A stretch of DNA of 64,000 bases. It comes from Tridacna crocea (Eukaryota; Mollusca; Bivalvia; Cardiida; Cardiidae). Shown piece after piece: positions 4,701-62,200 of the stretch. The position numbers were made by a program, and so were the translations under genes. The stretch spans positions 17,883,501 through 17,947,500 of the forward strand of contig OX031072.1 of assembly GCA_943736015.1 (NCBI GenBank), given 5' to 3'. Each line of letters begins with the position of its first letter. The first letter of the stretch is position 1. A model generated the notes under the pieces. The model saw only the letters and a list, made by a program, of their open reading frames with translations. It did no database searches and had not been told where the DNA came from.

Positions 4701-7700
4701 CGAGAATAACAGGGTAGGTTCGATTATATCAACACTCCCGAATGACGTCACGGGATAAGTGTCGTATTGCCTTGAAACAGTGCCGTCATACTACGAGACT
4801 CCCTGCTGCAGTCTCATAACTCATACCACGGATATGTCTGCTGCCAGCCTGGAGCCCTCTCCCATGACTCATACCACGATACGATAGCACCGTTTACCAG
4901 CGGAGATTTTTGCATTCCGTTTAGGATACACGTTTGATCAAATCAAACTTTTGAAAAACATGTATCCAAGACAGATCGAAACGTTGATGTTTGTTTTGAT
5001 ATACAAAAACTTTGAAACACCAACAAGTAGGAACAAATGGTCTACATTATATAATATATAATTATAAAACTTAAGAAGTCGACCTGCGCCGTCCATGCGG
5101 GCTGACATGAGACAAAATATTTTTCAATTTTTGAATTTTCTGCTTGTCAAAGGACTATTACAGCTCATGGTCCAGCCAGTTGTCGACAAAACTTATTTTA
5201 AGGATACGTAATTATACGATGACTAGCTTGGTCTCATTTATCATGGAGATCCTTTCACCCCTTACCACGTAATGACGCCTTTTAACGACCCTGAGGAGGA
5301 AGCCTTTTGAAAACATGGTGGGAAAAGGAGAAAATGCTGGTAACCAGCATTTTCTCCCTTTCCCACATTGTTTTCTACCCTTCCCAAATCCAGTTTAAAG
5401 TTTTGATTCACATTCATTTTGTCGTCTGCAAATGCTCTCAGTTTGGACTAGTCTTAAATTTTGTCGTTTGGTAAAGGGTTAAAATAAACCCCCTTCTGCT
5501 AGAACGTCGCTCATATGAAATTCAGATGCATTTAGTCCTATTTCTAGAGAGTATAGCTTATTAATATCATTCTCTACTATATTACAACAATAAAGTTTGA
5601 CGGTCGACAGTGGGTGAGGATGGATTCTAACAAAAACGGGCGGATACTTTTATCGCAGCAATTGGACTTCGAAAGCCTGAGAGTTAGAGAAAATGCATAC
5701 TTCTTCTTGAATGTTACAGTTACGGTATGTTTATATTCCTTCCTCAGTTTAGGCTTCTTTAAATATTGTGGCAAAAACTTATATTACTCACTTTTATTTC
5801 TCTATAGAGGTAATATTCACTAGGATGTCTTCATTTTCCTTTATATTGCGTAACCCTTTACCCAATAAGGCATTTCTATGATATCTCTAATTGACCCTAA
5901 ATAACAGCAAGGATGAAGCCGTTTCTTATGTGTATATTACACCTTTTGATAACATAGAAAACATTGTGACAAAAGGTGAAATTGCTCGTCACGAGCAATT
6001 TCACCTTTTGCCACAATGTTTTCCAAAGGCGCCTACAAGCAATACGTAGAAACGAATATCTGTGGTAAAGGGTTAACTAATTTTCTTAATATTTAGGCTG
6101 TGAAATGCGACTCACTGGCCAATTGCCGACTCTGCAGACTAGGATCAGACAGCAGTCTGATCTTGGTCCTACAGTGTCCGATATGGATATATTTTTTTCC
6201 CGAAAAGTCAATTTGAAATAGCATTATCCGGTTCTTTTACTATCGGTGTAATAGTTTCATCTGATTTATTTAGCATAATAGTTAAGGGGGGGCGGGGCTA
6301 AGCCCAATAATTTTTGAAAATGATCGTAACTAAAGTATGACTTTTTAGCGCTATGCAACAACCACGAAAAAAACAAAAATTAGTATTTCGAAGTTAACCC
6401 CCCCCGCCTCCTCTCAATCTTGAAATGCTTCCTACGTGCCTGGTCAGTAGCCGAAGCCTCTACATTTCATTGTCTTAGTAAACAGTTTAACTCTTAGGCT
6501 GCTAAGCGTGACTTACTGACTTTTTGCCGACAGTATAGATCAAGATCAGACTGCACGTTTTGTGCAGTCTGATCTTGATCTATACTCTCTGATAAGGAGA
6601 TATATTTCTCTCGAATAAAATACCGTTGCACTAGCAATATTGAGTTTTTATTATCGAATAGAAAATTTTCTCTTAGTTACTTAGCAGGGTAAGTGTTAAT
6701 TCCAGTACAGGTTCTGTCGGTAAATGCGTTTTTTGCTAAAATCGGTTTCGCTTAAACGCGCTCTAATTGTACTTATTTGTATATGAAAGGATGAAGGCGG
6801 GTACATGACGTCAACATCTATCCAAGTGGGAGTGGAAGACACAAATGACCAAGGTATAGAGTTTGTCTATCCCAACTGTAGCAGACCATGCACTGATGTG
6901 AACTACACGGTATTTACGAACGAATCTTACATAGTAAGGATTACATAGATCTAGTAATTTACCAGGTCAAGAAAAAGAAGAAACCCTTTCAAACAGAAAT
7001 CGCTTGCCGACGACAAATCAGATGTAAAGGCTTTTTTTCCTGATAGGGTAGAAAAAACTGTTCGAAAAGGAGCAAGTATTCGTTTCCAGCATTTTCTCTT
7101 CTTCTAAAGTTTCATTAGCTGTCTTTCCCAAGTTCTTTAAAACATTGGATTATTTATCAGAACTCCCAGTAAATCATACACTAATGTTAACTTCATGGTT
7201 TTTAAAAACGAGTATTACGTACCAAGTGTCTTCTTATAATTTTTTGCTGCTAGCAGTCCACGTATCAACGTGTTAAGCATGGGATACTAGAAGAAGTATC
7301 TTATATAGTAAGTATTGTCACTTATTCACCCAACAACATTTTTAAATTATTTCTTACCTTTTTTAATTGACATCCGATGACTTAACATATGGAGGACTTT
7401 TTGAAAGGTTCACTATGTATATCTCTGTAAAAAAGGTTCAACGTGGATTTATTTTGTATCCAGTAAAACAACTCATTACCTGTCTGTGAGAATGCATTCT
7501 AGATTTATACAGTTTCCAATTCGCTAAACTTTTGGCTTTTCCAGAAATTGTGTTACTGTAAAATTCAGTTCTAAGAGTCTTAAAAACGAACCAAGAGTGT
7601 TCAAATACTGGCGCAGGGCAATGATGTAGTAGGTGACCATTCAATGGCTGAAAGTCCCGGCGCAGCATCAGTTCGTAACCAATGAAATAATCCTATTACA

Positions 7701-18800: not shown

Positions 18801-21800
18801 AGGTAATTCTAAAGAAAAAAAAATATACGTTTTTCTTCTGCTTGGTTTTGTACCAAAAAGGTGTCGTTGCGTTCCGTTTTGTTTTGTTGCATTTCGTTTT
18901 GGTCCCATTTTATAGGAACCCATATTTATTTTATGAGTAGTTACTGAATAGATGATTATAATTTATTCACGGGCGAACACAAATAAAAATGTATATGAAA
19001 TAAAACTGTAATTATTTTAGAGTATTTTAATGAAACTTATGGCAAGATATGTGTTGGCAGACAAAAACACTTTTAAAGTTAAGTCCATGTGGAAAAAAGG
19101 CCTGTTTATAAAATAAAATTATATTTCCTTCTGAAGGACTTAAAGAAGAAGAACTTTCAAGTACCCCCTCGGCGATGTACTTTTTTTCAAATTGATTACT
19201 AGAACAAAAGAATAAATAATTGAAGAATTGATAGGAAAAATATATTACTCTTTAAAACTAGCATGATAATATATTGAGTATGAAAGACTGACAGCGGTTT
19301 CTTAATCGTGTAGATTTCATATGAAGACACTTTTCGTTTAAGTGTTTTTAGTACACTTCTAATAAGCCTGTTATCGCAGATAATTTTCAGGTTGTAGATA
19401 TGGACAGACAAATGGACAGAGAGACAGACAGGTAACTTCTATTCCTGCCTTTGCGGACAGTTACAATGTAACTAAGCAGAAACAGTTTTTCCTACTGAGT
19501 TGAATTTTAGTGTAGACAGAATCTGAGACAAATGTGCTTCGAGTGACCTTCCCATTGCGGGTCAAACATATATTTGTCTCAATTCCAATTTATCGCAATG
19601 ATGAATGTTTACGAGCACATCGTTCACACCTCGTGAGACAAATGCACCAAGACAAATGTGCTCGTACACAGGTAACGACCCAGTCTAATATTTTCCTTAT
19701 TGTTAAAGAGGTCCAACCAGTCCATTCACTTCTACCTTTTTTTTTTTGCACAACATTTTCCATGGCGTTGTTTCGTTAAAAGTATCTCTCTTCTGAAAAT
19801 TTATTTCAGGGTACAATAATTCAGCCTAGATTAGTGAATACAAGTAAATACCTGTCTGTACACAAGTCCATGACTTTACTACATACATAATGGCACTTAT
19901 TGGGAGGAAGCAGCGTGTTCACAAGAACTATAGAAAACTGCAAGAGAAAATATTTATATATATAAACGTTATATGTACGGTCTAGTAAGCGCAAGTAAAA
20001 AGCGCTAAATATTTCAATTTCGATCAAGATCAGACTGCACGAAACGTATGAATTGATGAATCTGCAATATCATCTCCAGGTAAAGAGTCAGACTGTAAGT
20101 GCAATTTGATTTCAATGAGAAAAATTAGCCTTGTCTGAATTGAAAGCATTTACAGATAACATTTCAAATGCCAGTAAATTGCATTAAAAAGAGAAAACAT
20201 TGTTGGAAAAGAAGAAAATGCTGTTACCCAGCATTTTCTCCTTTTCCAACAATATTTTCTAAAAGGGTCGTTTTAACACGGCATTATGTGGCAAAGGGTG
20301 CAGTCACTTAATACTTTATGAATGTAACACGAGTATAACGTAGCACAGAAAACCTTACACATGTACTCGTAAATACATGTAGTAGATAATCCCAGCTTAT
20401 TTAATCCAACAAGTTGACTAGCACAGACCCGAGTATTAATCTTGAGAGATCCGAATAAACGGACTACACATACAGTATAATGTTTTTAGCATAGAACAAG
20501 AAATATCTTTTTAAAAGATTGACGATGAAGTAATTAGATAACAAATTAGGTTAAGTCGCTAGCAGTTCTATGAGAACACTATATTCTCATTACAAACGGA
20601 TATGATAGTTTACCTCCCTTTTCTGGAAACTAACAAAAGTATCAACAATAATTTCAAGGTAGACATCAATGGAATTTCTGGTCGGTTAAAAATGTGCAAA
20701 AGTATTAAATCTGTATGCATCTGTCTTTATCAGCTGTGAAGAAATTTTATACCATGCTGCACTAGCAGTATATAACGGGTCCACTCCCTAAGCATGTACC
20801 GTTGAAAAAATAAGGAGCACTGGCCCAGGCAGATCTAAGATACCTGTTCATATTTCAGGTTCCATATCTGTACTGGCGAATACTCTTGGTCCCTTGGGTC
20901 AAATGGCTGTAGACTTTCACACGCCAGTTTCTGATCAGCTAGTTGAGGAATTTCTACATTATGGAACTCTTTTCTCATGTTTATACCTAAAAGAGCACGG
21001 CTGAAAGGAAAGTCGGTTAAAATTAGCTGAAAGTGACCATTTTGTTTATAAATTCGGTGCGCTAAGGGTTAAGATTTCTGAAGTGTTATGATTGCCACTG
21101 TTTTTAATACTCAATACATCGATTTTTCAGTCTCGCCTATATTAACCCTTTACTCCATAGATACTCATTTCTACGCATTGCTTGTAGGAGCCTTTGGAAA
21201 ACATTGTTGCAAAAGGTGAAATTGCTCGTCACGAGCAATTTCACCTTTTGCAACAATGTTTTCTATGCTATCAAATGGTGTCATATACACATAAGAAACG
21301 GCTTCATCCTTGCTGTTATTTAGGGTCAATTAGATATACCATAGAAATACCTTATGGGGTAAAGGGTTAACCCTTAGGCTGCTAAGCTCCACTCACAGAC
21401 CGTTTGCGGACAGTTTAGATCAACATCAAACTGCACAGAACGTACAGTCTGATCTTGGATATACACTGTCCGATAAGGCGATACTATTCCCTGATACATA
21501 ACTTTAAAATAGTAATATCTGGGTATCTACTATAGAATTAGAAATTTCGTTTTGATTATTTAACAGGATAAAGATTAATTCTCTACCACACAAAATTAAC
21601 CCATTACCAAACGACAATATTTTAGGCTGGTCCAAATGGAAAGCATTTGCAGACGACAAAATAAAAGTGAGATAAAATTTGAAATTTGTTTTGTGAAGGG
21701 TAGAAAACATTGTGGGAAAAGGAGAAAATGCTGGTTACCAGCATTTTCTCCTTTTCCCTGAATGTTTTCTAAAGGCTTCTTTCTCAGGGGCGTCAACAGT

Positions 21801-22492
21801 AGGGATTGTGTGGTAATGGGTTAAACGATCTTGGAGTGGAAAAAAAAGCTTTTGAAAACTTTGTAGGAACAGCACAAAATGGTTAAGAAACATTTCACCA
21901 TTTGAGCCACATTAAATTGTGGTCTTTCAGTTTGGACAAGACTAAAAGTTTGTCGTCTGGTAAGTGTTGAAAGGGTAATAAGAAACAGTGTTACAAAGGG
22001 GAAAAATATGATTATCGACTCTTTCGCGTTTCCTTATCATTTTTTATAAAGTCCTATTTCTTTAGAATTATGATTGTTTTTTTAAAGAGTAAATTATAGA
22101 AATTACAGACAGTAGATTGTGTTGATAGTGTTGATGAGAATCAGAATCGAGTACAGGAAATTCAATCTGATCTCGGAGAGACACATTACTATTTATATTT
22201 GGAATGTTCTGTAAAATTTTGTCTTTGGACTGGAAGGGTTATACCTGTTCATTTCGTGCGGTGAGAGTCGATTTATTAGTAATATCTCGTTCGCTAGCTT
22301 CCCTACATTCTATTTTACCCGACAGAAAAGAAAAAAGAAAGAGTGAGAGAGAAAGAGGCACAGAGAGAACATGGCAATATTAAAGTGAGTGATAGAAAAG
22401 ACTGAGAGAACGGTCGCCTGATGGACAGACGGACAGACGGTTTGGGACGTACAAACAAACAGACGGGCGACAGACGGGCGGAGAGAAAGACT

Positions 22493-22524
<32 letters not shown>

Positions 22525-22861
22525 TTTGAATAAAAAAGAATCAGAATTAAACATGGTAACAAACAACGAACTTGCACTTTCTTTTTTTTTTTTCGACCTT
22601 GTTTTCAAATGTTTTCTGTAACAATACGCTGCAGTAGAAGACGTGTATTAAGGCAAATCATTTTATTCTCGTAACACTGTAGCAAAAAGAGAAATTGATA
22701 TAGAAAATTATTAAGACGTGTATTAAAATAATTTAAACATTAACTTACATTCCGCTGGCCGCTATGTCAGTATATCCCAAGAAAACGGTACTCTTAAGTT
22801 TGAAATCTCCCAGTGGCACTATCGGTTCAACCGGCACAACCGTGTCCCTGTACCCAGACAT
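14105..22861 (-). CDS. unrecognised multi-exon gene (at least four exon-like blocks)
   Basis: Exon-like blocks in transcript order: 22749-22861 (starts MSGYRDTVVPVEPIVPLGD, donor AT|GTAAGT, 37 codons plus 2 bases), 20844-20986 (FHNVEIPQLADQ...PVQIWNLKYEQ), 19852-19937 (FSIVLVNTLLPPNKC...), 15989-16152 (TDHPPLPRDARINDG...TPAHRVCLGQ, donor CAG|GTAAGT), and perhaps a terminal block 14105-14170. Each has a pyrimidine-rich acceptor, a good donor and a single open frame. The second to third junction agrees in phase (0/0). The first to second and third to fourth do not, so further exons must lie between or a boundary is wrong. An in-frame TAA precedes the first ATG, supporting a true start. I do not recognise the protein. 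A faint resemblance of FHNVEIPQL to ciliary CFAP221 is not enough to name it. Confidence 0.45.
15771..15804. repeat. (CT)n microsatellite
   Basis: About 17 CT units. Confidence 0.95.
16178..16400. repeat. local duplication upstream of an exon
   Basis: A ~58 bp block at 16178-16236 (GAGACTATCAGAAATGAG ... AGCTAACCTTTCAT) recurs at 16340-16396 with few changes. It sits just beyond the acceptor of the exon-like block at 15989-16152. Confidence 0.6.
16620..16940 (+). repeat. SINE, 3' part and CAAT-rich tail
   Basis: The end reads TACTGAAATAATGTTGAAAA then GGCGTTAAACACC and CAATCAATCATTCATTCATT, the tail class common in mollusc SINEs. The 5' promoter part is not clear. Confidence 0.6.
17150..17420. 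repeat. ~170 bp imperfect direct duplication
   Basis: CCCTTGTTTAGTATAT followed by AATATGTTCTTTTTC occurs near 17200 and again near 17360, with a third short echo between. No coding potential. Confidence 0.45.
17926..18265 (+). repeat. dispersed repeat with GGGGGTATA ends
   Basis: Begins with AACCCCAACAACAAAGTGG and GGGGGTATATTGG and a GTCC-rich run. It ends GGAGCTGGTGGGGGTATAAT. A second copy at 29280-29585 shares CATGACCAT, ACTAAACCATTCTGCAT and the same ending. Nested inside TIR transposon copy 2. Confidence 0.7.
18362..18588. mobile_element. MITE-like element with GGAATACC ends
   Basis: Inverted ends GGAATACCGTGCCTC and GAGGCCCGGTATTCC match at 14 of 15 bases. The interior is rich in CGAGACAC and CTCGCTTCGTT blocks. 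No coding potential. Nested inside TIR transposon copy 2. Confidence 0.6.
18668..18686. repeat. poly(A) run
   Basis: About 19 consecutive A. It may mark the end of a retroposed fragment but no body was recognised. Confidence 0.7.
20120..20300 (-). mobile_element. hairpin MITE, family A, eroded ends
   Basis: Clear central palindrome (TTGGAAAAGAAGAAAATGCT and its partner) with reverse-orientation flanks. The terminal TTAA is lost on both sides. Confidence 0.65.
21142..21370 (+). mobile_element. TTAA-type hairpin MITE, family B, whole
   Basis: TTAA at 21142 and 21367. Ends are CCCTTTACTCCATA and TTATGGGGTAAAGGG. The central palindrome is perfect around GCTCGTCACGAGC, with arms GAAAACATTGTTGCAAAAGG. 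Its right TTAA is also the left TTAA of the next element. Confidence 0.9.
21367..21578 (+). mobile_element. TTAA-type hairpin MITE, family C, whole
   Basis: TTAA at 21367 and 21575. Left end CCCTTAGGCTGCTAAG. The central palindrome is imperfect (AGATCAACATCAAACTGCAC with CAGTCTGATCTTGGATATAC). It abuts family B on the left and lies 18 bp from a family A copy on the right. Confidence 0.85.
21596..21824 (-). mobile_element. TTAA-type hairpin MITE, family A, whole
   Basis: TTAA at 21596 and 21821. Both ends read CCCATTACCA inward. Reverse orientation. The arm next to the GCTTCTTTCTCAGGGGCGTC flank carries the variant CCCTGAATG; the same variant lies on the opposite arm in the copy at 27320. Confidence 0.9.
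22417..22524. repeat. (GACA)n microsatellite
   Basis: GACA/GACG runs ending in about eight perfect GACA units. It throws long open frames on both strands, which are spurious. Confidence 0.9.
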
Positions 22862-23212
22862 TCTAGCACATTATAGTCCTGTTTAATATTGCGGAAAATA
22901 CAAAACCCAAATGCAGTGCGGATCTGCAAAAATAGATCTATGAATTGTTTCGTGCCTTACACTGTACTTATATTCTCACTTGAATCATGGCTTGATATTG
23001 ACACCTCGTATGCATCGACGTATAGATTTTTTTTATTTGGGAAAGTTTGTTGATGTGACACAAGTGAGTTCATTGCTTAGTCTAGGTTCGAATTGATAGA
23101 AGTATTCATGGATTTCAGCTTTAGCCGGTAACACTCTCTGTGTTTTCAATTCTATCGTATATCCGTTTGTACCGATTCATCCAGTTCTTATAGGGCTGTA
23201 GATCCGTAATTA

Positions 23213-23500
23213 TTGATTGATTGATTGAATGGCGTTTTACACCGCTTTTGAACATTATTTCAGTCATATCACCGCAATACTTCCAGTGAAGCTCAAGCCC
23301 TGAACATTGGGACCGAGCTTAGGACAGCTGGTCTCAAAGCGATTTTGATCATTCGACTATGGGAGTGATCGGGCCACTCAATTTGCATTTTGTTTGATTT
23401 CTTAGCTGGCTGTACCGGGTCAGCCATAGAAGGAAAGTGCTCCTATCTTACTTTTGCTTTCTCGAAATAAGAAGAAAAAACTAGGGCCTTTTTGTTCCAG
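23213..23500 (-). repeat. SINE in reverse orientation
   Basis: Starts with the reverse tail ATTGATTGATTGATTGAATGG and GCGTTTTACACC, then CATTATTTCAGTCATATCAC. The head is not resolved. It lies in the gap between the divergent unknown gene and RANGRF. Confidence 0.65.
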
Positions 23501-24015
23501 AGGCTGAACTGTGATAATACGCACAAATCAACAGTCTGTCTCGTAGGAAATAAGGTGCATTAGAACCAAAGTATAACACCATTGTAGACAGGTTTTAGAG
23601 CCTACGTCCGTCATTAACTTTTTCTCACGTTTGTTATTTAACTTTTGATAAAACTAGAAAAAATCATGCGACGAAAAATAAGTTGGGTTTATAGCTAAGA
23701 ATTTATTACATGTAGGCTATGTAACAACAGAAATTACGGAAAAAAACTTTATCAACAATGTTTTAAATGTTGGCCTTAATGTGACAGCAAATTTTGTAAA
23801 TAAATGGTCCAGAGGGGATAGGTTTTTTAACGATTGCTTTGAAATGAATAAATAAAGAATTGCGGACTTTGTCACCAATATATATCAGATTAAAATCTGT
23901 CTTTCCAGAAAGAGGCATATTTGCAAGTTTCTTCTTGTTATATAACACATTCCTAGAAATCAAGTACCAATGTCCTGCATAACCCGAGATCCATCAATTG
24001 TACGTGGACAGTTCT

Positions 24016-24109
24016 TTCTTGCACGGGAGCAGGTCTTTCCCGCACATGTGCAGGTTTTCTATCTACAGAACAACCTGTTCAGGTGCATGGATAGACCTGC
24101 TCTCGTGCA
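24016..24109. repeat. ~94 bp nested inverted repeat
   Basis: Outer arms TTGCACGGGAGCAGGTCT and AGACCTGCTCTCGTGCAA, inner arms GCACATGTGCAGGTT and AACCTGTTCAGGTGC. The two pairs stack into one long stem with a small loop. Not one of the TTAA families. Confidence 0.75.
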
Positions 24110-24469
24110 ATCCATTTTGTCAAGACAGGTCGTTTTGAAAAAGATAGACTTGGTCCAAAGAAAGGAGCTGGTATGTAAATATACATCTAAAGGTGTGTAC
24201 ACACCAACGACCCGAGGTTCACGGGTGTTGGTTGTGTCATGCTCTGCATGAGTTCTTGGTGAAATAAATGGAGGATTTTTTTTCTGTTTTAAGCGTTCTC
24301 ATTTGAAATTCAACTCGCAAACAAACACTTTTAAAAATTCTTGCTTTGAACATATTCTCGTTGGCAGTTTCTCAGTAAATGTAGGCCCGAGCCCCTCTTT
24401 CAATTTCTATTTTACATCACGGATGAATAACCCGTAATGTGTAACTTGGCGGTTTTGAGGGGTGTGTCG

Positions 24470-24930
24470 TTTCAAGCCAATAAGAAACGTCAGTTGCAGT
24501 TCCAGCAAATCAGAGGGCGAATAGCGCGCATTTTATACATGATGTTGAGACTGGTTGCAGCTTTCATGCAAAAGTCTGAAATTTGGTTACTAATGCTAGG
24601 CGCCGTTGGTCCCTAGCCAAAAACGTCATCTACAGAAACGTGCTATTTTTTTTTACTTTTTCCGCAAATTATGTGTTGTTTTGAGTTTCAATTTAGCTTG
24701 GCATTTTCATGCTAGCTTCCTGGGTTTGCATATTGTGAATTTTTTAAAATAGGCTATTTAAAGTGTTATATTTTATCAGTTTTTTGCCTGTATTGATAAG
24801 TAACTTTAATTTTCATTCACAATCTAAGAAATAGGAAGTCTGTGCTGTTGCATTCAAACTTGTGCTCTTTGTAATTTCAGGTTGATTATTTTGACTGTTT
24901 ACCTGAAAAGTTTGGTGTGACGTCGTGAGT
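24470..24930 (+). promoter_or_regulatory. candidate RANGRF promoter and 5' non-coding exon
   Basis: Holds a CCAAT box (AGCCAATAAG near 24474), a TATA-like TTTTATACAT near 24531, a GC-richer patch, and a full CRE palindrome TGACGTC at 24918. A 44 bp block at 24881-24924 has a good acceptor (TTTGTAATTTCAG) and donor (GTC|GTGAGT) and may be a 5' UTR exon. It does not join the RANGRF frame. Placement only; no start site can be proved. Confidence 0.3.
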
Positions 24931-25681
24931 ACCTACAACATTATACATGGAAACCTTGTGCTGCAGCCTATTAATTAATTTGGTCTATAGAGAAGTTACT
25001 AATTTTTATACAAAAATTATTTCCCTTTTCACAAGGGAATTAATTCTTGAATCATCCACTACTCTGAGTGAAACTCGCTGATGTACCATTGGAGTTTCTT
25101 CGCCACAAGCACTGTACATGAAATTGCGTCTGTATTTTACTATCAAGAGAACCTTTAGCTGATGAAGCTCTTTTACCCGATGACATGTGTTCTTAAAATA
25201 AATATGACGATTTCTTAAAGTGGTTCAAACTGGACGTATCAAGTTAGTCCAGGGACTTCTCTGAAGTTTTCATAATTAAAACGAAATTTGTGATTACCTT
25301 TCTTTTAATAAAAAACGTCAAAAGACATCTTAACTAAACAGTCATAAAAATATTTCAGGTAACACTTTTATTTAACTTCATTATGTGTTAATATTAGAAA
25401 CCCTTATTATGTAGAAGTAGTAGTATGTTTGGACTGTAGTAAAACCCGGATACTAAATGTTCGACACTCGCTTTTTTTCTATTCTTGCAGACGAATAAAT
25501 TGTAGACCTATTCAGACTGAAAGGTTATATGAATATGTTTGAAATGATGTTTTTATTATTTTTGAATGAAAAAAAAAAAAAAAAAAATGGGGAAAAACAG
25601 GCCGGAAAACATAGTAGTGAGAGGAGAAAATGGTTTTAAGCTCTATCTGATGTAAATTTTGTTGTTTGATGAAGAACTTAA

Positions 25682-25724
25682 ATGGCTGTGATATGACTGA
25701 AATAATATTGAAAGCCATGTGATA
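25682..25724 (+). repeat. SINE tail fragment
   Basis: GGCTGTGATATGACTGAAAT followed by AATATTGAAAGCC, the shared SINE 3' segment, just before RANGRF exon 1. Confidence 0.55.
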
Positions 25725-25826
25725 GTACTATTAGATTAATCTGACAGTTATGTACCTTGAGTGTTCTAGCATTCAAAACAATTGAGAGACCAATTATGGC
25801 AATATTTGTAATCCATTGTAACAGAT

Positions 25827-28800
25827 ATGCAATCCGAAAGACAACTTTATGGTGGAGCCTTGTCCGTTGTGCTTCCTGAAACAGCAAGAGATGTAAGGTA
25901 AGACTTGCTCTTTGTGTGTACCAGTATTTTCAGATAACCTTTTATGCATTGCAGCGTACTGTTGATATATTTGACCTCCACTGAAAATGCAGCAGGGATA
26001 TGGTAATAGTAGCTGTCTGTACTTCCATCCCACTTTCTTGTCCAGAGCATAACTCAAAACCTTTATGAGATGTAAACATAAAATTTCAAAGGCAGGTAGA
26101 TCTTATCAAGGAGAAGTGAAATATGCAAGAACCATAACTCTTGATTGCATAATTTAGGAATTATTGCACTTCCTTATTTTTCATACTTAAATTTTGTCCA
26201 GAGCATTATCTTTGTGGTTTTCTTAACTCTTTACAATATTGTAGACTCATCAAAATCCAAGGCATTAGCAGAATGACCTGATAAATGTAGCTTAAAGAGT
26301 TTTGATTGTATTCAAAATGGTAAAAAAACATGAAAGGAAAAAAAAGAACTTGCTGGTTACTCTTTACCACCATACGGCAAAATTTTTGGAATAGGCAAGA
26401 TTGAAAATATTTGCAGACAACTCAAAAATGTAGATTTCTAGTTTTTGAAGTGTTGGAAAGCATTGGAAAAGGAGAGAATGTTGATTATCACCATTTTCTC
26501 CTTTTCGGCAATGTTTCCAAACACGGTCAATTTCTAGGTTGTTGAAAAAGAGTTAAGTGAGTGGAAGTTAAATCTTATTTATGTTAGTATGCAACTCTTG
26601 TAAACTGCAGTTTTTTGTATCATGTATTTTGGGCTGGTGGCCTTTAATTACGAATAAAGAACTTGAACTTGAGAAAGATAGCTTTTTACAGTCATTTGTC
26701 AAATAACATTGTGCCGATGTGCGGAGCCCCACCAGCCCCATCAGTTTAGATGCAGGACTGGAGGGGGAGGGGGGGGGGGGCCCTGTTCTCAAGTCCTGTA
26801 CACTACTACACTACCAACTGAGAAAAGGGGGTTACCAGCATAATCTCCTTTTGCCACAATGTTTTCAAAAGCTATTTTTCTCAAACTTGAGATTGTTTGG
26901 TAAAGAGTATTCAGAGAATGGTCGAAAATAGAAGAGGAATGAATCCTGTTGCAATGACTCATCAGCCCTCGGAAAGAAATTGGCCAAGTCAGAGATGGAA
27001 CCAACAACCTCATGTTCTCAAGTCCAACATGCTACCAACTGAGCTACTGGGACAAGTATTATTTAGACAAATGATTCGTAAAAAAAGATTCATATTCTTG
27101 TAATGTCTTACTTTAAAGAAAACAATGTTTTAGCCTGGTTCAAATTGAAAGCATTTGAAGAGGACAATGGACTGAATTCAAGAATTGAAGTTGGCCTATT
27201 GAAGGGAAGAAAACATTGTAGAAAAAGGAGAATATTTTAGTAACCAGCATTTTCTCTTTTTCCTACAACGTTTTCCAAAGGCTTTTCTATCAGGGTTGTT
27301 AAGGTTAGGAATTGTGTAGTTAACCCATTACCACACAATCCCTACTTTTGACGACCCTGAGAAATAAGACCTTAGAAAACACTGTGGGAAAAGGAGAAAA
27401 TGCTGGTTACCAGCATTTTCTCCTTTTCCCTGAATGTTTTCTGCCCTTCACAAATCCTAATTTCAAATTTTCAGTCACTTTTATTTTGTTGCCTGCAAAT
27501 GCTTTCAGTTTGGACAAGCCTAAGATATTGTCATTGGGTAATGAGTTAAAAGTTACGTAAAAGGTTAAAAGATATCCCAGGGCTGCATAACATTTGTTAT
27601 GTTATGAGACAATTGTTTATGTTTTCCAGTGTTATCCGACAGATACCAGACAACCAGGAGGTGTTTGTCCATCCAAACACAGATCAGAGTTTTATAATAG
27701 AGATTATGGAAATGGCTGATCCACAGCTGCCAGATGAAATGGCTGTAGAGTAAGAGATGCAACTTTTAGTTTTCCTCATTCCACATATTTCACACAAGCA
27801 AATTCATCTCATTTTCTACCTGTAGACAACTGTTGTCCATCTTGCAGCAGATGGCTTTTGGAAACATTATGCCTGAAGAACAATTTAATTTTAACAAGCC
27901 ATTTGATATTTTTCCACTAGTATTTAGGCTTTCAAAAGTGGTGGGGGAGGGTGTATTAAAAGAAAATTTGTTAGAATTAACCCATTACCACACAATCCCT
28001 ACTTTTGATGCCCCTTAGAAAGAAGCCTTTAGAAAACATTGTGGGAAAAGGAGAAAATGCTAGTAACCAGCATTTTCTCCTTTTCCCACAATGTTTTCTA
28101 CCCTTCAGACAACAAATTTCAAATTTTCAGTCACTTTTATTTTGTTGTCTGCGAATGCTTTCGATGTAGACAAACTTAAAATATTGTCATTTGGTAACGA
28201 GTTAAATGTTTAGTCACAGAATGAATTTTGTAAGGCATTAGTTGGAAAAGCATTGAAAGTAAGTGTGAAAAGTACAACAAAAGATTTTTTCAATGATAAT
28301 TCTTTATGAATGATCAAATGAGAGTGTGGACCTTGTTTAACTCTTTACCACATATTCCCGATTGAACAACCCTGAGATAGAAGCCTTTTAAAAACATTGT
28401 GGGAAAAGGAGAAAATGCTGTTAATATTGAACACTTTAATTATTTATTTATGTTCAGACAGTTATTATTTATTCATTTACAGGACACATTTTAAGGACCT
28501 AGCGCAAGCAAACAGTGCTGAAGAAGATTGTCAGATTATTGTTAAAGAACAAATAGCCCAAGAAAACTATGCAATGCAACAGTAAGTGTGCAATATTGTA
28601 TTTCCTATACAGTGCAGTTAAGTTTTGATTAACCCTTTTCTGCACAATGTCAACTCTTTACGAACCTAAGGCCCTGGGAAAGAAGACTTTAGAAACCATC
28701 GTTCGAAAAGCAGAAAACTTTCCCCAAATGTTTTCTACCCTACCAAAGAATAATTGCACCATTTTAGCTACATTGGAAGTTTTGAATCCAAATAGTTTTA

Positions 28801-31172
28801 GTTTAGACAAAGCTAAATTCTGTTGTTAACTTTTTATTGCACAATCCCGACTTTTAATGTCCCTGAGAAAGACAGCTTATGAAATCATTCTGGGAAAAAG
28901 AGAAAATGCTGGTAATCAGCATGTTTTCTACTTTTCCCAATTCAAATTTCAATTTTTGATTTACATTTATTTTGTTGACTGCAAAGGCTTTCAAATTGGA
29001 CTAGTCCAAAGTTTTGTCGTTGAGTAAAAAGTTAATCAGACAAATATTATCAATTCTTTACCAAAGTATCAAAGTAAGAATAAAGTAATACCTTGTTTGT
29101 AAGTTTTTTTTCCTTTCTAAAGACAGGATAATTTTGTACATGAGATATGCTCTGTACCAAAGGATTTTAATGCATCTGTGAAAAAATAAACCCTTGTTTG
29201 CCTGCACACTTCATGTCAGCTGGCATAGACAGAAACCTTTTCTGCTTTTGGTAAATTATCTGCATGTCCAAAGACCAGTATACCTCATTATTATACCTGC
29301 ACAACGAAAGGGGGTATACTGGAATTGGGACGGCTGTCTGTCCGTCCATCTGTCCATAGACACAGATTTGTCCGAAGCAATACACAGGGTTCATATATTC
29401 ATATTTATGAAGTTGTGTATATGCAGTTTTCATGACCATGCTGCAATTTGTTGTTTAATTATCTCTCCTAGAACTTTTTTCAGCTCTTATTACTTTTGTA
29501 CTAAACCATTCTGCATTCTGTGACAAAGACCTGTTTTTGTGACAAGGAGCTGGTGGGGAGTATAATCACGTTTAATGATAGCTCTAGTTCAGTCTGGTGT
29601 TCAACATAATGTTTTTTATTGATCTGTAATTACACAATAATTTGCCTAGGGCCAAGAAAACGATATCTACCCTAAACACTGGTATTTTTTTGTTAGGCTT
29701 TATATAATGCATCATAGCAATGCATTAATCCTTTACAAGCCTTTTAAACCCTTTCCCAAACAATCCCTGATTTTTAACAGGTCAGGAATAGAAGCCTTTT
29801 GAAAACATTGTGGGAAAAGGAGAAAATGCTGGTAACCAGCATTTTCTCCTTTTCCCACAATGTTTTCTACCCTGTCATATAGTAAGATCATCTTTTTAGC
29901 AAATGATAATGTGTCACCTGCAAAATGCTTTGAATTTGGTCTGGTCCAAATTTTGCCATTTGGGAAAGGGTTAAAGCTTAGGAAAGCATTGTTGAAAAAG
30001 AAAATGCTGATAAGCAGCATCGTCTTCTTTTCCCACAATGTTTTCTACCCATTTGAAGGCAAAGGCAAATTTTATTTTTTGAGTCTAATATGTGACTTAG
30101 AAATGCTTTCAACTTAAGACAAATCTAAAATTTTGTTGTGTAGATTTAAATTCCATTTTACTAGAGCGCCATGTTTGATTGCTTTACCAGGGCTGAGAGG
30201 TGCTGGTACCTAAAAGGAGAACAGAGTATATCCAAGTACAATGAAGTTGTGAAGAACAGTGTAGAACTACATATTGGTGTATACAGGGTACCAGAATTTG
30301 ACACAGACATTCTGCTGAGTTTCAATGATCCCATTTATATAGAGTAAGGATTTTTTGTTCGGTAGGGTGTTTTTCTGCTTAACCCATTACCACACAATCC
30401 CTACTTTAGATGCCCCTGAGAAAGAAGCCTTTTGAAAACACTGTGGGAAAAAGAAGAAAATGCTGGTAACCATCATTTTCTCCTTTTCCCAGTGTTTTCT
30501 ACCCTTCCCAGAACAAATTTCAATTTTTCAGTTACATTTATTTGTCATCTGCAAATGCTTTCAATTTGAACCAGTCTAAAATTTTGTCGTGTGGTAAAGA
30601 GTTAACTCTTTACCAAACAACAAAATTTTAGACTGGTCCAAATTTAAAGCATTTGCAGACCACAAATGTGACTAAAGAATTGAAATTTGTTTTAGGAAGG
30701 GAAAAAAACATTGTGAGAAAAGGAGAAAATGCTGGTAACCAGCATTTTCTCCTTTTCTCACAACGTTTTCAAAAGGCTTCTTTCACAGGGGTGTTAAAAG
30801 TCGGGATTGTGTCGTAAAGGGTTAAACCGTAGCCCATATTCACCATCCATTCTCAAGACTGTTCTTTTTGCAATTCTCCAGAATTTTCTAAATTTGAATG
30901 TAATACAGTTTTGATTGGCTTATCTAAATGTTTTAGCTGCAGGAGTGAGGAATTTCTGTGCCCGACTTGTGCGGTATTCAACCTATGCTATTTATGAAAC
31001 AATGTTTCATACATGACATATTTTTTCTTCTTCCTGTAGCACAGCCAGCAGTAGCCATCAAGCCACACCCACATCAGCTGCCAGATGGACCGTGGATGAT
31101 TTCAGAAAAGCGTTGTCTTCTCTTAAAATTATTAGCACAGCTATTTTTGGAGTGGAAAACATGGATGACTAA
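25827..31172 (+). CDS. RANGRF: Ran guanine nucleotide release factor (MOG1 homologue), complete
   Basis: MOG1/RANGRF binds Ran in the nucleus, promotes nucleotide release and supports nuclear protein import; in mammals it also helps traffic a cardiac sodium channel. Exons: 25827-25897, 27630-27749, 28483-28581, 30191-30343, 31040-31172, all GT-AG, phase 2 at every junction. Together they give 191 residues against 186 in human. Recognisable blocks are LYGGALSVVLPETARDVS (residues 7-24; human LFGGAFSAILP), IPDNQEVFVHPNTDQSFIIE (29-48; human [20 protein letters not shown]), KEQIAQEN (85-92), TDILLSFNDP (135-144; human TDLLLTFNQP) and RWTVDDFRKALSSLKI...IFG (163-184; human PWSLGDFEQLVTSLTL...IFG). 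The ATG is chosen because it precedes the first conserved block. No defect is seen. Introns are crowded with hairpin MITEs. Confidence 0.96.
26225..26556 (-). mobile_element. two overlapping old family A MITEs
   Basis: Two starts of the CTCTTTAC type (26228 and 26360). One recognisable hairpin lies at 26455-26520 (GGAAAAGGAGAGAATG and partner), ending GAGTTAA. Heavily mutated. Confidence 0.5.
26600..26680 (+). mobile_element. LINE 3' tail
   Basis: TGTATTTTGGGCTGGTGGCC then AATAAAGAACTTGAACTTGA, a typical 3' UTR end of CR1/L2-like LINEs. A related end in the other orientation lies at 35165-35235. No coding part is present. Confidence 0.5.
26815..26915 (-). mobile_element. half of a family A hairpin MITE
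   Basis: One hairpin arm and one end only (GTTACCAGCATAATCTCCTT ... GATTGTTTGGTAAAGAG). It follows a G-rich run at 26760-26782. Confidence 0.55.
27115..27323 (-). mobile_element. hairpin MITE, family A
   Basis: Reverse orientation, right end TTAA at 27320 shared with the next copy. The hairpin has changed arms (AAAACATTGTAGAAAAAGG). Confidence 0.75.
27320..27549 (+). mobile_element. hairpin MITE, family A, with inverted hairpin
   Basis: TTAA at 27320 and 27546, standard flanks in forward orientation. The centre reads CTGGTTACCAG and the right arm ends CCCTGAATG. Both are the reverse of the arrangement in the copy at 21596 relative to the flanks. It lies 80 bp upstream of RANGRF exon 2. Confidence 0.9.
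27977..28205 (+). mobile_element. hairpin MITE, family A, whole
   Basis: TTAA at 27977 and 28202, full palindrome (centre CTAGTAACCAG). In RANGRF intron 2. Confidence 0.9.
28337..28422 (+). mobile_element. family A MITE, left half only
   Basis: TTAA, left end and left arm run normally to GAGAAAATGCTG, then the match stops at the middle of the palindrome. The break at the hairpin tip suggests failed copying or cleavage there. It lies 60 bp upstream of RANGRF exon 3. Confidence 0.75.
28629..29035 (+). mobile_element. two family A MITEs sharing a TTAA
   Basis: First copy 28629-28829 has lost most of its hairpin core. Second copy 28826-29035 keeps arms GGGAAAAAGAGAAAATGCTG and CAGCATG. The TTAA at 28826 serves both. 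In RANGRF intron 3. Confidence 0.75.
29280..29585 (+). repeat. dispersed repeat with GGGGGTATA ends, copy 2
   Basis: Starts near ACGAAAGGGGGTATACTGG with a GTCC-rich run and ends GGAGCTGGTGGGGAGTATAA. Same family as 17926-18265. In RANGRF intron 3. Confidence 0.7.
29744..29974 (+). mobile_element. hairpin MITE, family A, whole
   Basis: TTAA at 29744 and 29971, full palindrome with centre CTGGTAACCAG. A degraded second copy abuts it to about 30140. Confidence 0.85.
30379..30605 (+). mobile_element. hairpin MITE, family A, whole
   Basis: TTAA at 30379 and 30602. 35 bp after RANGRF exon 4. It shares its right TTAA with an oppositely oriented copy. Confidence 0.85.
30602..30825 (-). mobile_element. 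hairpin MITE, family A, whole
   Basis: TTAA at 30602 and 30822, reverse orientation. With its left neighbour it makes a ~450 bp inverted pair that could fold as one long duplex in the pre-mRNA. Confidence 0.88.
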
Positions 31173-35714: not shown

Positions 35715-35939
35715 TTAACCCTTTACTCCATAGATACTCAATTCTATGCATTGCTCGTAGGAGCCTTTGGAAAACATTGTGGCAAAAGGTGAAATTGCTC
35801 GTGACGAGCAATTTCACCTTTTGCCACAATGTTTTCTATGCTATCAAAAGGTGTCATATACACATAATAATTTCATCCTTGCTTTAACTCAGGGTCAATT
35901 AGAGATACAATAGAAATGCCTTGTGGGGTAAAAGGTTAA
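35715..35939 (+). mobile_element. TTAA-type hairpin MITE, family B, whole
   Basis: TTAA at 35715 and 35936, perfect central palindrome around GCTCGTGACGAGC. It lies 34 bp beyond the CDA stop codon, inside or just past the CDA 3' UTR. Confidence 0.9.
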
Positions 35940-58696: not shown

Positions 58697-59280
58697 GTAT
58701 GTTTAAATCCTAGTTTCGTGCTCTATTTTCGAAATTATGAGAGTTCAAACTTGCGAACAAAATCTGTGTGGAACTTTCAATTGGTTTTGTCATGATCGTC
58801 TCTTTACCCAGAGGCGACCAGTCAAAAAGTAACATCGCCTTTGGGGAAAGTTATCTGTACTAGTTAGTGCGATAATTTAAGAGAACTGTCAGTGAAAATG
58901 TTAACGATAAAAATATCAAAATAATTCTGTTATTTTCATCTCTTTTTTTTCTTTTGTGCCCATAACTGGCATTCATGGTATCTATAATAAGATTTATTTT
59001 CGGAACATCTTCGTCTACAACCTTGTAAATTCTCTTTTTTCCTGAAATTTACCAGTGAAGCAACAATTGCTAATCATTGAATTTTTACTTACTGCAATCT
59101 TGTGATGTGAATTCGTCCAAAATGGCGAATTTTCTATTTATGTATAACGAGAAACGGATAGAAATATAACAATAATTAATTAAAAAGAAGCACAATGTTT
59201 CAGTGCTTTACTATGATTGTATATTATAATGGGAAATCAGAGGAAATGGAAATGCTTGATTTTTATGTTACATAGATAAA

Positions 59281-62200
59281 ATGATGTCACAAGTGGATAC
59301 AGTAATACGTGGCGGACGTGTGATAGACCCAGGAAATGATGTCGACTCTGTGCTTGATGTGGCGATTAAAGATGGGCGAATATGCATGGTCGGGAGTAAA
59401 TTAAAAATCAAAGCTAAACAAGAATTCGACGCAACGGATTGCCTAGTAACGCCAGGTCTTATCGATGCTCACGTGCACTGCTATCAGTATGCCACACCTC
59501 TTGGTGTTAACCCGGATAAAACGTGTCTTGCACGTGGTGTGACCACTGTAATTGATGCCGGAAGTGCAGGTATTTCCTTCTTTATAACATGTGATATGGG
59601 CCATGTTCTGTAAAAGGGGTTTAATGCATCCGAGAGGAAAAATCCAACCCTTGTTGACAGCCTATCCAGCCTGTGCTGGCTTACTCGGGTTTAGACATGG
59701 TCAGCTTTCTGTGTGTCTAAAGACCAGTCTGCCTCACGCTACAGCCGGTCACAAGTACAACAAGTGGATTTTATGGATCGATAATTATGCGACTGCTTGC
59801 TTGCTATAAAGGAACACGAAGGTAGGTTCAAACCCCTTTTGCTAGAGTATGTCTTATATGTAATATTTTCTTACTTCTTTGTCGTATTTTTACAACTTCT
59901 TTCGTGAATGAAAGAAATATCTCAAATGTCAAGTAGGACCACAAAACTAAATCAAACGTGGCATGAGTACGTTATAGTTTCAGAGAAATTAGTAATCGAC
60001 AGGTTGCAAATTGTTCCAGTCCTATATTCTAATTGTTATATTATATTATATTATAAATACTAGCGGTGTGATAAACAAAGACAAAACATCTAGCAAATCC
60101 AACATTGGCTAGTTGTGGATTCTACATCTATATATATGTTTTGAGAAAAACAAAAACAAGTGCTCATCCAAAATCCTTTACTTGAAGTTTCTTTCTTTTC
60201 GAAATACAATGAAACTTATTCATCTAATTAGCATTAGTTTTGTTATGATAAATAAGTGCATAATGCATTCATGATAAGCAATATGCTTATTTAAAGAAAA
60301 AAGACATTTAAATTTCCATTTTACAGGAGCAAGCACTTTCATGGGACTGAAGAAGTTTATAATTGACAAGTCAAAAACACGAGTGAAATCTCTGCTTCAT
60401 ATTGCGCTTCACGGCTTGGCAGCGTCAGGTTGTGCTGGTGGTGGTAAGTATTGCTTAACTCTTCACAACACGATCCCCAGTTTTAACGACCTTAACAAAA
60501 AAGGCTTTTGAAAACAAAGTGGTAACCAGCATTTTCTCCTTTTCCCACCATGTTTTCTACCTCATGAAATACAAATTTTATCATGTAAACCACATTTTTG
60601 TCATCAAATGCTTGAAATTGGGACCAGTCATATTGTTTTTTTCTTAACTAGAACTTTACTGTATTTGTTGTCACATGCCTTGTCACAACAAATAAGGCAT
60701 CCAGTTTCAGATGATTTTTTTGTTTGTTTATTGTGGCTGTATCCGAATATAGCTGACAGTTAACACGACTATTTATACAACACGTTTAACTTCTAGCTCC
60801 TCTCGTGCCTATACGTTAAGGTAAGAGAATTGACTAAGGATGTGTTGAAATTAATACAAGCTTGTTTAGCAGATAGAGCTTTGGCCTAGGGCAGCCGTCG
60901 GTGGCTCTTTGGTTAACGCTCTGCAGAGTTCTGGATTAAAACAGCCGTCTGTAGATTCTTGAAGCACTGAATAGCTTTGGCCAGGGACAGTCGTCCGTAG
61001 CTCCGTGGTTAAGGCACTAGAATTTTAATCTGGAGATCCCGCAAGTGATTCTCGCTTTCTGTCCTGTGCACGAGGTAATATCACCCTGTTTGGTACAGCA
61101 AAGCAAAAGGGTTTGACACACTGAGAGAAAAGACAGGGATAAATCAGCCGTGGCTGTGATATGATTGAAATAAAAAATCGGCCAACATTTAGCAGTCACA
61201 AAAGGAAAGTTTGAAAATAGCTTTCTTAAGATACGAGTGCGCTGAACAAAAATATATTCATTCTTTCACTATTTTTGAGACTGTTTATATAACATTTTAT
61301 AAGACATACTAGTTCCTCAATTAAGGTTGCCACTAGGGGTTGTGCCACTATTGAACCATATTAATTTTGTAAACCATTCACTTGTGTATTTGTAACAGCG
61401 TCTGGTGGAGAGTCCGACACTCTGGCGGTACTGGACAAGGACACCTGTAGACAATGTATAGAGGAGCACAGGGAGGACATTGTCGGTGTGAAGGTGCGCC
61501 TTCAGTCCTCCGTTTGTTGTAATGGTGAGACAGAGGTAGAGGCTTACAGGTAAGCTCAAGCTATGTGTCAAATCAATTTTGATTAAACAAAGATCATTGT
61601 ATTTGTTGACGGTGTAAATAACAAACGTGATTTGAGTATAGATAATCATACAATCGAGAACTTCACAACTTAGCTGTGGCCTTTTTATTTTTTGGTTGGG
61701 TACAGGTTTTTGTATGTAAAATGTATGCCATCCAAAAAGGTAAAACAGCAATGTTAAGTTTTTTCCAAAAGATAATATGGCTAAGGCAACACCTCGATAC
61801 AAGCGACGTGAATGATTTCTGAAACAAACATCTATAAAATCGAATGACGACCTGGATTTTAGATCTTGAAATCAAATGGCTTTGAGTTCGAATTCTTGCT
61901 TTGCCAAGACCAATCTTGAGCCATGTCAAAAGTAGAAAGCATTTTTCTGTCGTAGATTTATACATGGATAAAAGGGCGAACTGTCCATGATTTCCTGATC
62001 AAAATAAGAACAGTCCCTTGACAATTTTGTTTATAGATATGTCAATAAGAAATACGAGCATAGAATGATTATTGGTTCACATACGTTTAAAGACCATTAT
62101 ATGGGAACATTTCCTCACTGGATGTAGAGCGCATATAGATCTATCTTGATCAAAGACTGTCACGAGGAATCGGTCGCAGTAGGTTGAGAAGAATATTGAG

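What the first reader, a model, noticed from the sequence alone, without database searches (positions are those of the whole stretch)
21596..27549. Central hairpin of a MITE family inverted between two copies
The A copies at 21596-21824 and 27320-27549 share a rare arm variant, CCCTGAATG in place of CCCACAATG, and the same centre. In the first, placed in its own orientation, the variant lies on the arm next to the GAGAAAGAAGCC flank and the centre reads GGTAACC. In the second it lies on the other arm and the centre reads GGTTACC. The whole hairpin of ~66 bp is flipped relative to unchanged flanks. That fits inversion by recombination or template switching between the arms, or a hairpin module that is excised and resealed. 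The centre also reads GGTTACC in own orientation at 30602.
Basis: seen in the sequence. Interest (0 to 1): 0.72.

Follow-up and report, generated by a model that had tools for sequence, protein, structure and literature searches.

The report
Flipping hairpin inside a repeated element
A mobile repeat present in tens of thousands of copies in this genome carries a near-perfect 67-base hairpin whose middle is turned round in a minority of copies, probably by a known copying error at palindromes, although the pair of copies that drew attention could be partly coincidence.

Summary
Both copies are TTAA-bounded MITEs with a 67-bp hairpin; on the + strand the hairpins differ at 1 base while their flanks lie in opposite directions. 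Oriented by flanks, A1 has the TG doublet on the right arm and centre T; A2 has it on the left arm and centre A.

The pair alone is weak evidence: the doublet arm occurs 124 times genome-wide, on either arm, mostly with centre T where I could read it, and sets of 12 unlinked copies contain such a pair in 19% of draws (2% if equally clean).

The family supports flipping. In one exact context centre A occurs 2,842 times against 32,288 T and only 769 C, an excess not seen at arm sites, scattered over flank subfamilies. Without A1/A2, single-arm variants tend to be shared mirror-wise between T- and A-centred copies (p about 0.001, but one marker carries much of it). A second hairpin family switches G/C, and two of its copies on different contigs are exact mirror images. 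Rare variants also recur on both arms.

Best reading: occasional in-place inversion and arm homogenisation by template switching, a known process, at unusual scale. Excision and resealing has no support.

The parts
21596..21824 (+). MITE copy A1 (GAAGGGTA flank on the left), bounded by TTAA
   Evidence: 229 bp, TTAA at both ends
21703..21769 (+). A1 hairpin, 33+1+33 bp, doublet TG on right arm, centre T at 21736
   Evidence: folded with one flanking base each side: -32.5 kcal/mol, z -12.8
27320..27549 (-). MITE copy A2, opposite orientation, bounded by TTAA
27375..27441 (-). A2 hairpin; oriented by flanks: doublet on left arm, centre A at 27408 (T on + strand)
30602..30825 (+). third copy with minority centre A (hairpin 30704-30770, centre 30737); arms carry paired changes GTGAG/CTCAC
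27122..27320 (+). degraded neighbouring copy, also centre A (27242), abutting A2 at its TTAA
21197..21263 (+). family B hairpin (AGCCTTTG left flank), centre C
35770..35836 (+). family B hairpin, same flank orientation, centre G
5957..6023 (-). family B hairpin, opposite orientation; oriented centre G, right arm GTCAC

Best explanation
The 67-bp centre of this TTAA MITE family is a near-perfect palindrome with one unpaired middle base. While such DNA is copied, the growing strand occasionally switches to the complementary strand inside the palindrome and later switches back. The stretch between is then written as its reverse complement, in place. In a perfect palindrome the only visible result is that the middle base becomes its complement (T to A here, G to C or back in the second family); if an arm carries a variant inside the switched stretch, the variant moves to the other arm. 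A switch confined to one arm instead makes both arms alike. A2 and the copy at 30602 most likely carry hairpins whose centre has been inverted this way. Shown: the centre excess, its scatter over subfamilies, modest linkage with arm variants, excess of paired arm changes, mirror-image hairpins in family B. Inferred: the polymerase mechanism, when it acts, and whether the doublet moved with the centre in A2.
For: (1) Exact whole-genome counts with fixed flank, left arm and inner right arm: centre T 32,288, A 2,842, C 769 (G not counted). A:C is 3.7 at the centre against 59 A<->T changes to 88 transitions at 35 arm A/T sites in 181 sampled copies. (2) 36 of 40 fetched A-centred copies with perfect left arms fall in the three largest flank clusters, all three of which hold A and T; no significant nearest-neighbour clustering (25 of 40 versus 19.7 expected, p=0.2). 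(3) Linkage in 96 unselected copies without A1/A2, within 22 nt of centre, single-arm variants shared collinear/flipped: T-T pairs 222/180, A-T pairs 61/102, 0 of 3,000 permutations, p=0.001; flank margin 40 or more p=0.0035; control label p=0.78. (4) Marker 4 nt from centre: R-T 169, L-T 99, R-A 10, L-A 15, p=0.03, likelihood ratio 14 for flip. (5) Family B: 13 distinct copies seen, centre G 10, C 3, no A or T; the hairpins of L060 (G) and L256 (C) differ at 3 bases in place and at none when one is turned round, and share a paired change seen in no other of the 13; L032 differs from one common form at 4 in place, 1 flipped. (6) Arm homogenisation: paired complementary changes 30 versus 9.8 shuffled (max 21 of 2,000); doublet on both arms in 6 copies with different flanks.
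Against: Linkage leans on hairpin position 12; without it p is 0.04-0.13. Marker 31 gives 27 A to 333 T on the left arm, the background ratio, uninformative without right-arm counts. The doublet shows no linkage. Centre A does not rise with flank divergence (5, 4, 6 of 41 per tertile of the main cluster) and one cluster is richer in A (8:1 versus 28:38 in a sample drawn equally from A- and T-centred lists, p=0.012), so part of the A class is probably inherited. In the enlarged sample A-A pairs are not more collinear than flipped (31/42), and A-A sharing went against expectation (7/17). In family B the arm marker is not consistently tied to the centre: right-arm T with G 6 and with C 1, left-arm A with G 1 and with C 1; L032 differs from the other common form at 3 in place, 2 flipped.
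Confidence: 0.68

Rival explanations
1. Coincidence for this pair: the TG doublet arose independently on opposite arms of A1 and A2, and A2 merely has the minority centre A (8% in the exact context, 16 of 100 unselected copies).
For: Doublet on right arm with T 41, left with T 20, right with A 9, left with A 5: 75 clearly oriented rows of 88 recovered, A1 and A2 included; single-change forms frequent in the listed near matches; 19% of random 12-copy sets hold a pair as good; A1 and A2 are 88% alike overall, so not recent duplicates.
Against: Only 2.2% of random sets hold one with flipped difference 2 or less; the doublet is rare (124 genome-wide) and both lie within 6 kb.
Confidence: 0.6
2. 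Local exchange: a hairpin from one copy overwrote the other in direct orientation, because a palindrome can pair with another in either direction.
For: On the + strand the two hairpins agree at 66 of 67 bases, 5.7 kb apart; the flanks beyond the hairpin run in opposite directions.
Against: Of 42 same-locus pairs of incidental copies the largest flipped advantage is 2, so no general tendency of neighbours to exchange flipped hairpins was seen.
Confidence: 0.12
3. Inherited dimorphism: source elements with centre T and with centre A (or G and C) coexisted and copies simply inherit one or the other.
For: Centre A is as frequent in low- as in high-divergence copies, and one flank cluster is rich in A.
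Against: No significant nearest-neighbour clustering of A; the commonest minority base is the complement in both families; arm variants tend to be mirrored. Inheritance of flips made in sources is compatible with the best explanation.
Confidence: 0.25
4. Hairpin module cut out and resealed by a nuclease or transposase, in either direction.
For: The flip as such, and the exact mirror pair L060/L256 in family B.
Against: No length changes at the hairpin edges in A1/A2; the minority centre is about 8% rather than near one half; the linkage signal is strongest within 22 nt of the centre and weaker over the whole hairpin.
Confidence: 0.03

Closest known systems
Template-switch inversion of inverted-repeat spacers with arm homogenisation (yeast, PMC8604942; rRNA and microRNA hairpins, PMC8794818; abstracts and matched passages seen)
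   Same: Perfect inverted repeat arms, spacer replaced by its reverse complement in place, arms made alike, recurrent and (in yeast) reversible.
   Different: Here the spacer is one base, the repeat is a transposon in tens of thousands of copies, and the evidence is statistical, not parent to child. In the rRNA study loop inversion alone was enriched, but a stem change together with loop inversion was not.
CMITE elements of Acropora corals (PMC2872659; abstract and matched passages seen)
   Same: TTAA-flanked MITEs whose internal region (75 bp there) is shared across families with different outer parts.
   Different: Here 229 bp with a 67-bp palindromic core; the words palindrom-, hairpin and secondary structure are not in that paper's main text; sequences were not compared.
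Flip/flop of parvovirus terminal hairpins (recalled, no call)
   Same: A palindrome found in both orientations relative to fixed flanks.
   Different: Recalled: there it comes from terminal hairpin replication with both orientations common; here it is internal and about 92:8.

Membership tests
Inverted-repeat spacer inversion by template switching | Centre replaced by reverse complement in excess of point change | tested here: met
   T 32,288, A 2,842, C 769 against arm sites in a sample; family B G 10, C 3 of 13
Inverted-repeat spacer inversion by template switching | Variants inside the switched stretch move to the other arm together with the centre | tested here: inconclusive
   Positive but marker-dependent; mirror hairpins L060/L256 and L032; doublet shows none
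Inverted-repeat spacer inversion by template switching | Homogenisation of arms | tested here: met
   30 paired complementary changes versus 9.8 shuffled; 20 versus 7.2 without position 8; shared descent of paired changes not excluded
Inverted-repeat spacer inversion by template switching | Change seen between parent and offspring or alleles | not testable with these tools
   One assembly, no reads; the tool states it has no relatives held
piggyBac-type TTAA MITE | TTAA target-site duplication | tested here: met
   Both A1 and A2
piggyBac-type TTAA MITE | Terminal inverted repeats | tested here: met
   A1: 14 identical bases TTAACCCATTACCA at both ends; A2 imperfect, 12 of 14
piggyBac-type TTAA MITE | CC[C/T]T terminal motif (as stated in PMC2872659) | tested here: inconclusive
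   100-copy flank majority: right end CCCT, left end CTCT; A1 CCCA at both ends
piggyBac-type TTAA MITE | Partner transposase with the same ends | not tested
CMITE | Internal region shared across families with different flanks | tested here: met
   100 copies with the same core but flanks about 18% from the flank consensus; copies were chosen by the core, so biased
CMITE | Sequence relationship to coral CMITEs | not tested
   No comparison made

The most novel reading that the evidence does not exclude
The flip happens mainly when copies are made (during transposition or the associated repair or replication) rather than slowly afterwards, so that each MITE insertion records whether its palindrome was inverted, and the families form a natural genome-wide reporter of template switching.
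Probability: 0.2. Interest if true: 0.65.

Novelty: new member of a known kind. Interest (0 to 1): 0.45.

Why it matters
The two studies of palindrome inversion whose passages I saw count tens of events each. A hairpin repeated tens of thousands of times with one asymmetric base, and a second family with a different asymmetric base, gives a large natural data set for how often and how far polymerases switch strands at hairpins in a gigabase genome, and a warning that inverted palindromic cores can mimic subfamilies.

Tried and rejected
A1/A2 as proof of a flip: set aside after the resampling test and the both-arm distribution of the doublet. Marker position 19: its left/right asymmetry is probably an artefact, because selected nearly intact right arms; incidental copies were used afterwards. 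Marker 31: two searches gave the background ratio and cannot decide alone. Age of A-centred copies: no trend. Sharing test on all classes over the whole hairpin: p=0.26, 0.08; the signal sits within 10-22 nt of the centre, and five radii were tried, so p-values are not corrected for that choice. Exact-arm set test: p=0.045, with its A-A cell against expectation (7 collinear, 17 flipped). Mis-orientation as source of the linkage: tested by raising the flank margin; p=0.0018, 0.0035, 0.0065 and 0.05 at margins 30, 40, 50, 60 within 22 nt. Elements with the left flank on both sides would be counted in both T and A patterns; 1 (L147) of the 40 printed A-centred copies. Pfam on 10 of 16 long open frames and Rfam on the window gave nothing relevant; the organism was not identified. 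In one search some rows counted as centre A are column shifts in gapped hairpins: by eye 5 right-arm and 3 left-arm rows are clean.

Rows dropped: hairpins that do not align without gaps over 67 bases, flank margin under 15 or 20, over 12-14 differences, 317 of 452 detected copies kept. In the all-classes sets, A1 stayed in as its copy in L001; the unselected sets exclude both A1 and A2 (checked). Of the 100 listed doublet places plus the window, 88 rows were recovered; the 24 doublet places beyond the listing were not seen. In one search, 37 of 99 doublet arms had no readable mate. The output was cut; it is sorted by likeness to family B, so the 13 copies counted are its head, and weaker B copies may be in the cut part; a gapped copy (L063) and a partial one (L091) were left out.

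Full report
What is there. The window lies in an unnamed 1.05-Gb, 31-contig assembly. It is rich in short TTAA-bounded elements: 12 ungapped, oriented family A hairpins lie in the 64 kb. The core is a 67-bp palindrome, 33+1+33 bases, usual centre T. A1 has centre T and TG for AC on the right arm; A2, once reversed, has the mirror change on the left arm and centre A. As single strands both fold into long hairpins (z -12.8 and -12.6).

Is the pair special? A1 and A2 differ at 6 of 67 hairpin bases in flank register and at 1 when one hairpin is turned round: a flipped advantage of 5. Of 2,961 pairs of unlinked copies, 10 reach 5 or more; of 66 window pairs, one does. Random sets of 12 copies contain such a pair in 19% of 20,000 draws, and one with flipped difference 2 or less in 2.2%. 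The doublet arm occurs 124 times in the genome, of which 100 places were listed. In 75 clearly oriented rows of 88 recovered (A1 and A2 included) it lies on the right arm with T (41), the left with T (20), the right with A (9), the left with A (5): no linkage to the centre. One-step forms CCCTCAATG and CCCAGAATG are frequent in the 100 places listed. The pair therefore cannot carry the claim.

The centre base genome-wide. With flank GGGTA, an exact left arm and an exact inner right arm, the centre is T 32,288, A 2,842 and C 769 times (G was not counted). In 181 sampled copies, 35 A/T arm sites show 88 transitions and 59 A<->T changes; the A excess at the centre is far from this ratio (p about 6e-23; copies are not independent, so only indicative). 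Among 100 unselected copies (A2 included) the centre is T 81, A 16, C 2, G 1. A-centred copies with perfect left arms occur in all three large flank clusters (24, 4 and 8 of the 40 fetched), without significant nearest-neighbour clustering. One cluster is richer in A (8:1 against 28:38 in a sample drawn equally from A- and T-centred lists, p=0.012), and A does not increase with flank divergence in the main cluster. So inversion in source elements or at copy birth probably contributes.

Do arm variants move with the centre? I compared single-arm variants between copies from different loci. If A-centred copies are flipped, they should share variants with T-centred copies mirror-wise, while T-T pairs share in place. 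In 96 unselected copies without A1/A2, within 22 nt of the centre, T-T pairs share 222 in place and 180 mirrored, A-T pairs 61 in place and 102 mirrored; label permutation gives 0 of 3,000 and p=0.001 in a second run. With flank margin 40 or more p=0.0035, 50 or more 0.0065, 60 or more 0.05. A control label, the first right-flank base, gives p=0.63-0.80. Position 12 carries much of this (right arm with T 9, left with T 2, left with A 3, right with A 0 in unselected copies; p=0.33 when all classes are pooled); without it p is 0.04-0.13. Whole-genome counts for a marker four bases from the centre: right-T 169, left-T 99, right-A 10, left-A 15, p=0.03, likelihood ratio 14 in favour of flip. For position 31 only left-arm counts were obtained, T 333 and A 27, the background ratio, uninformative alone. 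An exact-arm data set gave p=0.045, with its A-A cell against expectation.

A second family. Three hairpins in the window (21197-21263, 35770-35836, 5957-6023) belong to another family with the same 33+1+33 design; their arm differences from family A form 5, 4 and 4 complementary pairs, covering 10 of 10, 8 of 8 and 8 of 9 positions. In the 353 kb held, 13 distinct oriented copies were seen with centre G (10) or C (3), none with A or T (the output was cut at weaker matches). Two of them, L060 (centre G) and L256 (centre C), with flanks in the same orientation and on different contigs (loci near C2:46.1 Mb, and C1:27.2 Mb), are exact mirror images over all 67 bases: 3 differences in place, none when turned round; both also carry a paired change that the other 11 lack. 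L032 (centre C) differs from one of the two common forms at 4 in place and 1 turned round, from the other at 3 and 2 (flanks). Against a simple tie of marker and centre: right-arm T goes with G six times and C once, left-arm A with G once and C once; L060 and L256 relative to the common form need one whole flip and one flip of the centre alone.

Arm homogenisation. In unselected copies, complementary changes on both arms number 30, against 9.8 when right arms are shuffled among copies (maximum 21 in 2,000); without position 8, 20 against 7.2. The rare doublet is present on both arms in 6 copies with different flanks (L055, L083, L088, L097, L103, L131), of 62 doublet arms with a readable mate (L088 counted for both its arms); none of the commonest left-arm dinucleotides printed for unselected copies is that doublet. 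Shared descent of paired changes cannot be excluded for the common ones.

Mechanism and what is known. Template switching between inverted-repeat arms is reported to homogenise arms and to invert the spacer, recurrently and reversibly, in yeast (PMC8604942, passages seen), and loop inversions are reported in rRNA and microRNA hairpins (PMC8794818, passages seen). That process predicts the patterns above: complement at the centre, mirrored arm variants, arms made alike, recurrence. Coral CMITEs are TTAA MITEs with an internal region shared across families (PMC2872659, passages seen); no inversion of it is mentioned in those passages. Five searches of the library (listings only, apart from passages of the three papers named) showed in their listed rows no paper on inversion of a hairpin inside a MITE; most subscription journals are not held.

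Verdict. Observation confirmed. The inversion idea holds as a family-level process with moderate confidence, on evidence other than the pair that suggested it; for A1/A2 the shared doublet is more likely independent, while the A centre of A2 probably reflects an inversion. It is a known mutational process in an unusually large natural sample.

Noticed in passing
window 21197-21263, 35770-35836, 5957-6023; L032 880-946; L060 near 1767; L256 near 481: Second hairpin family whose centre is G or C; the hairpins of L060 and L256 are exact mirror images, and L032 is one base from the mirror of a common form.
   Followed up: partly
window 27122-27549, 28629-29035, 30379-30825: Family A elements abut each other at or next to a TTAA, as if new copies insert into the target duplication of old ones.
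   Followed up: no
L051-L053 (G000 C1:57389020-57389365): Three copies of the doublet hairpin in a direct tandem array with a 162-bp period.
   Followed up: no
L147: A copy with the left-type flank on both sides of the hairpin, so its orientation is undefined.
   Followed up: no
100 fetched copies L138-L237: The same hairpin core sits between flanks of at least three distinct clusters, which diverge far more than the core (copies chosen by the core, so biased).
   Followed up: partly
hairpin positions 10-11 genome-wide: The AC to TG doublet recurs on either arm in copies with different flanks, which may itself reflect a multi-base mutation process.
   Followed up: partly
window 59260-59610 +: Weak Pfam match, below the curated cut-off, to amidohydrolases in a 117-codon open frame.
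   Followed up: no
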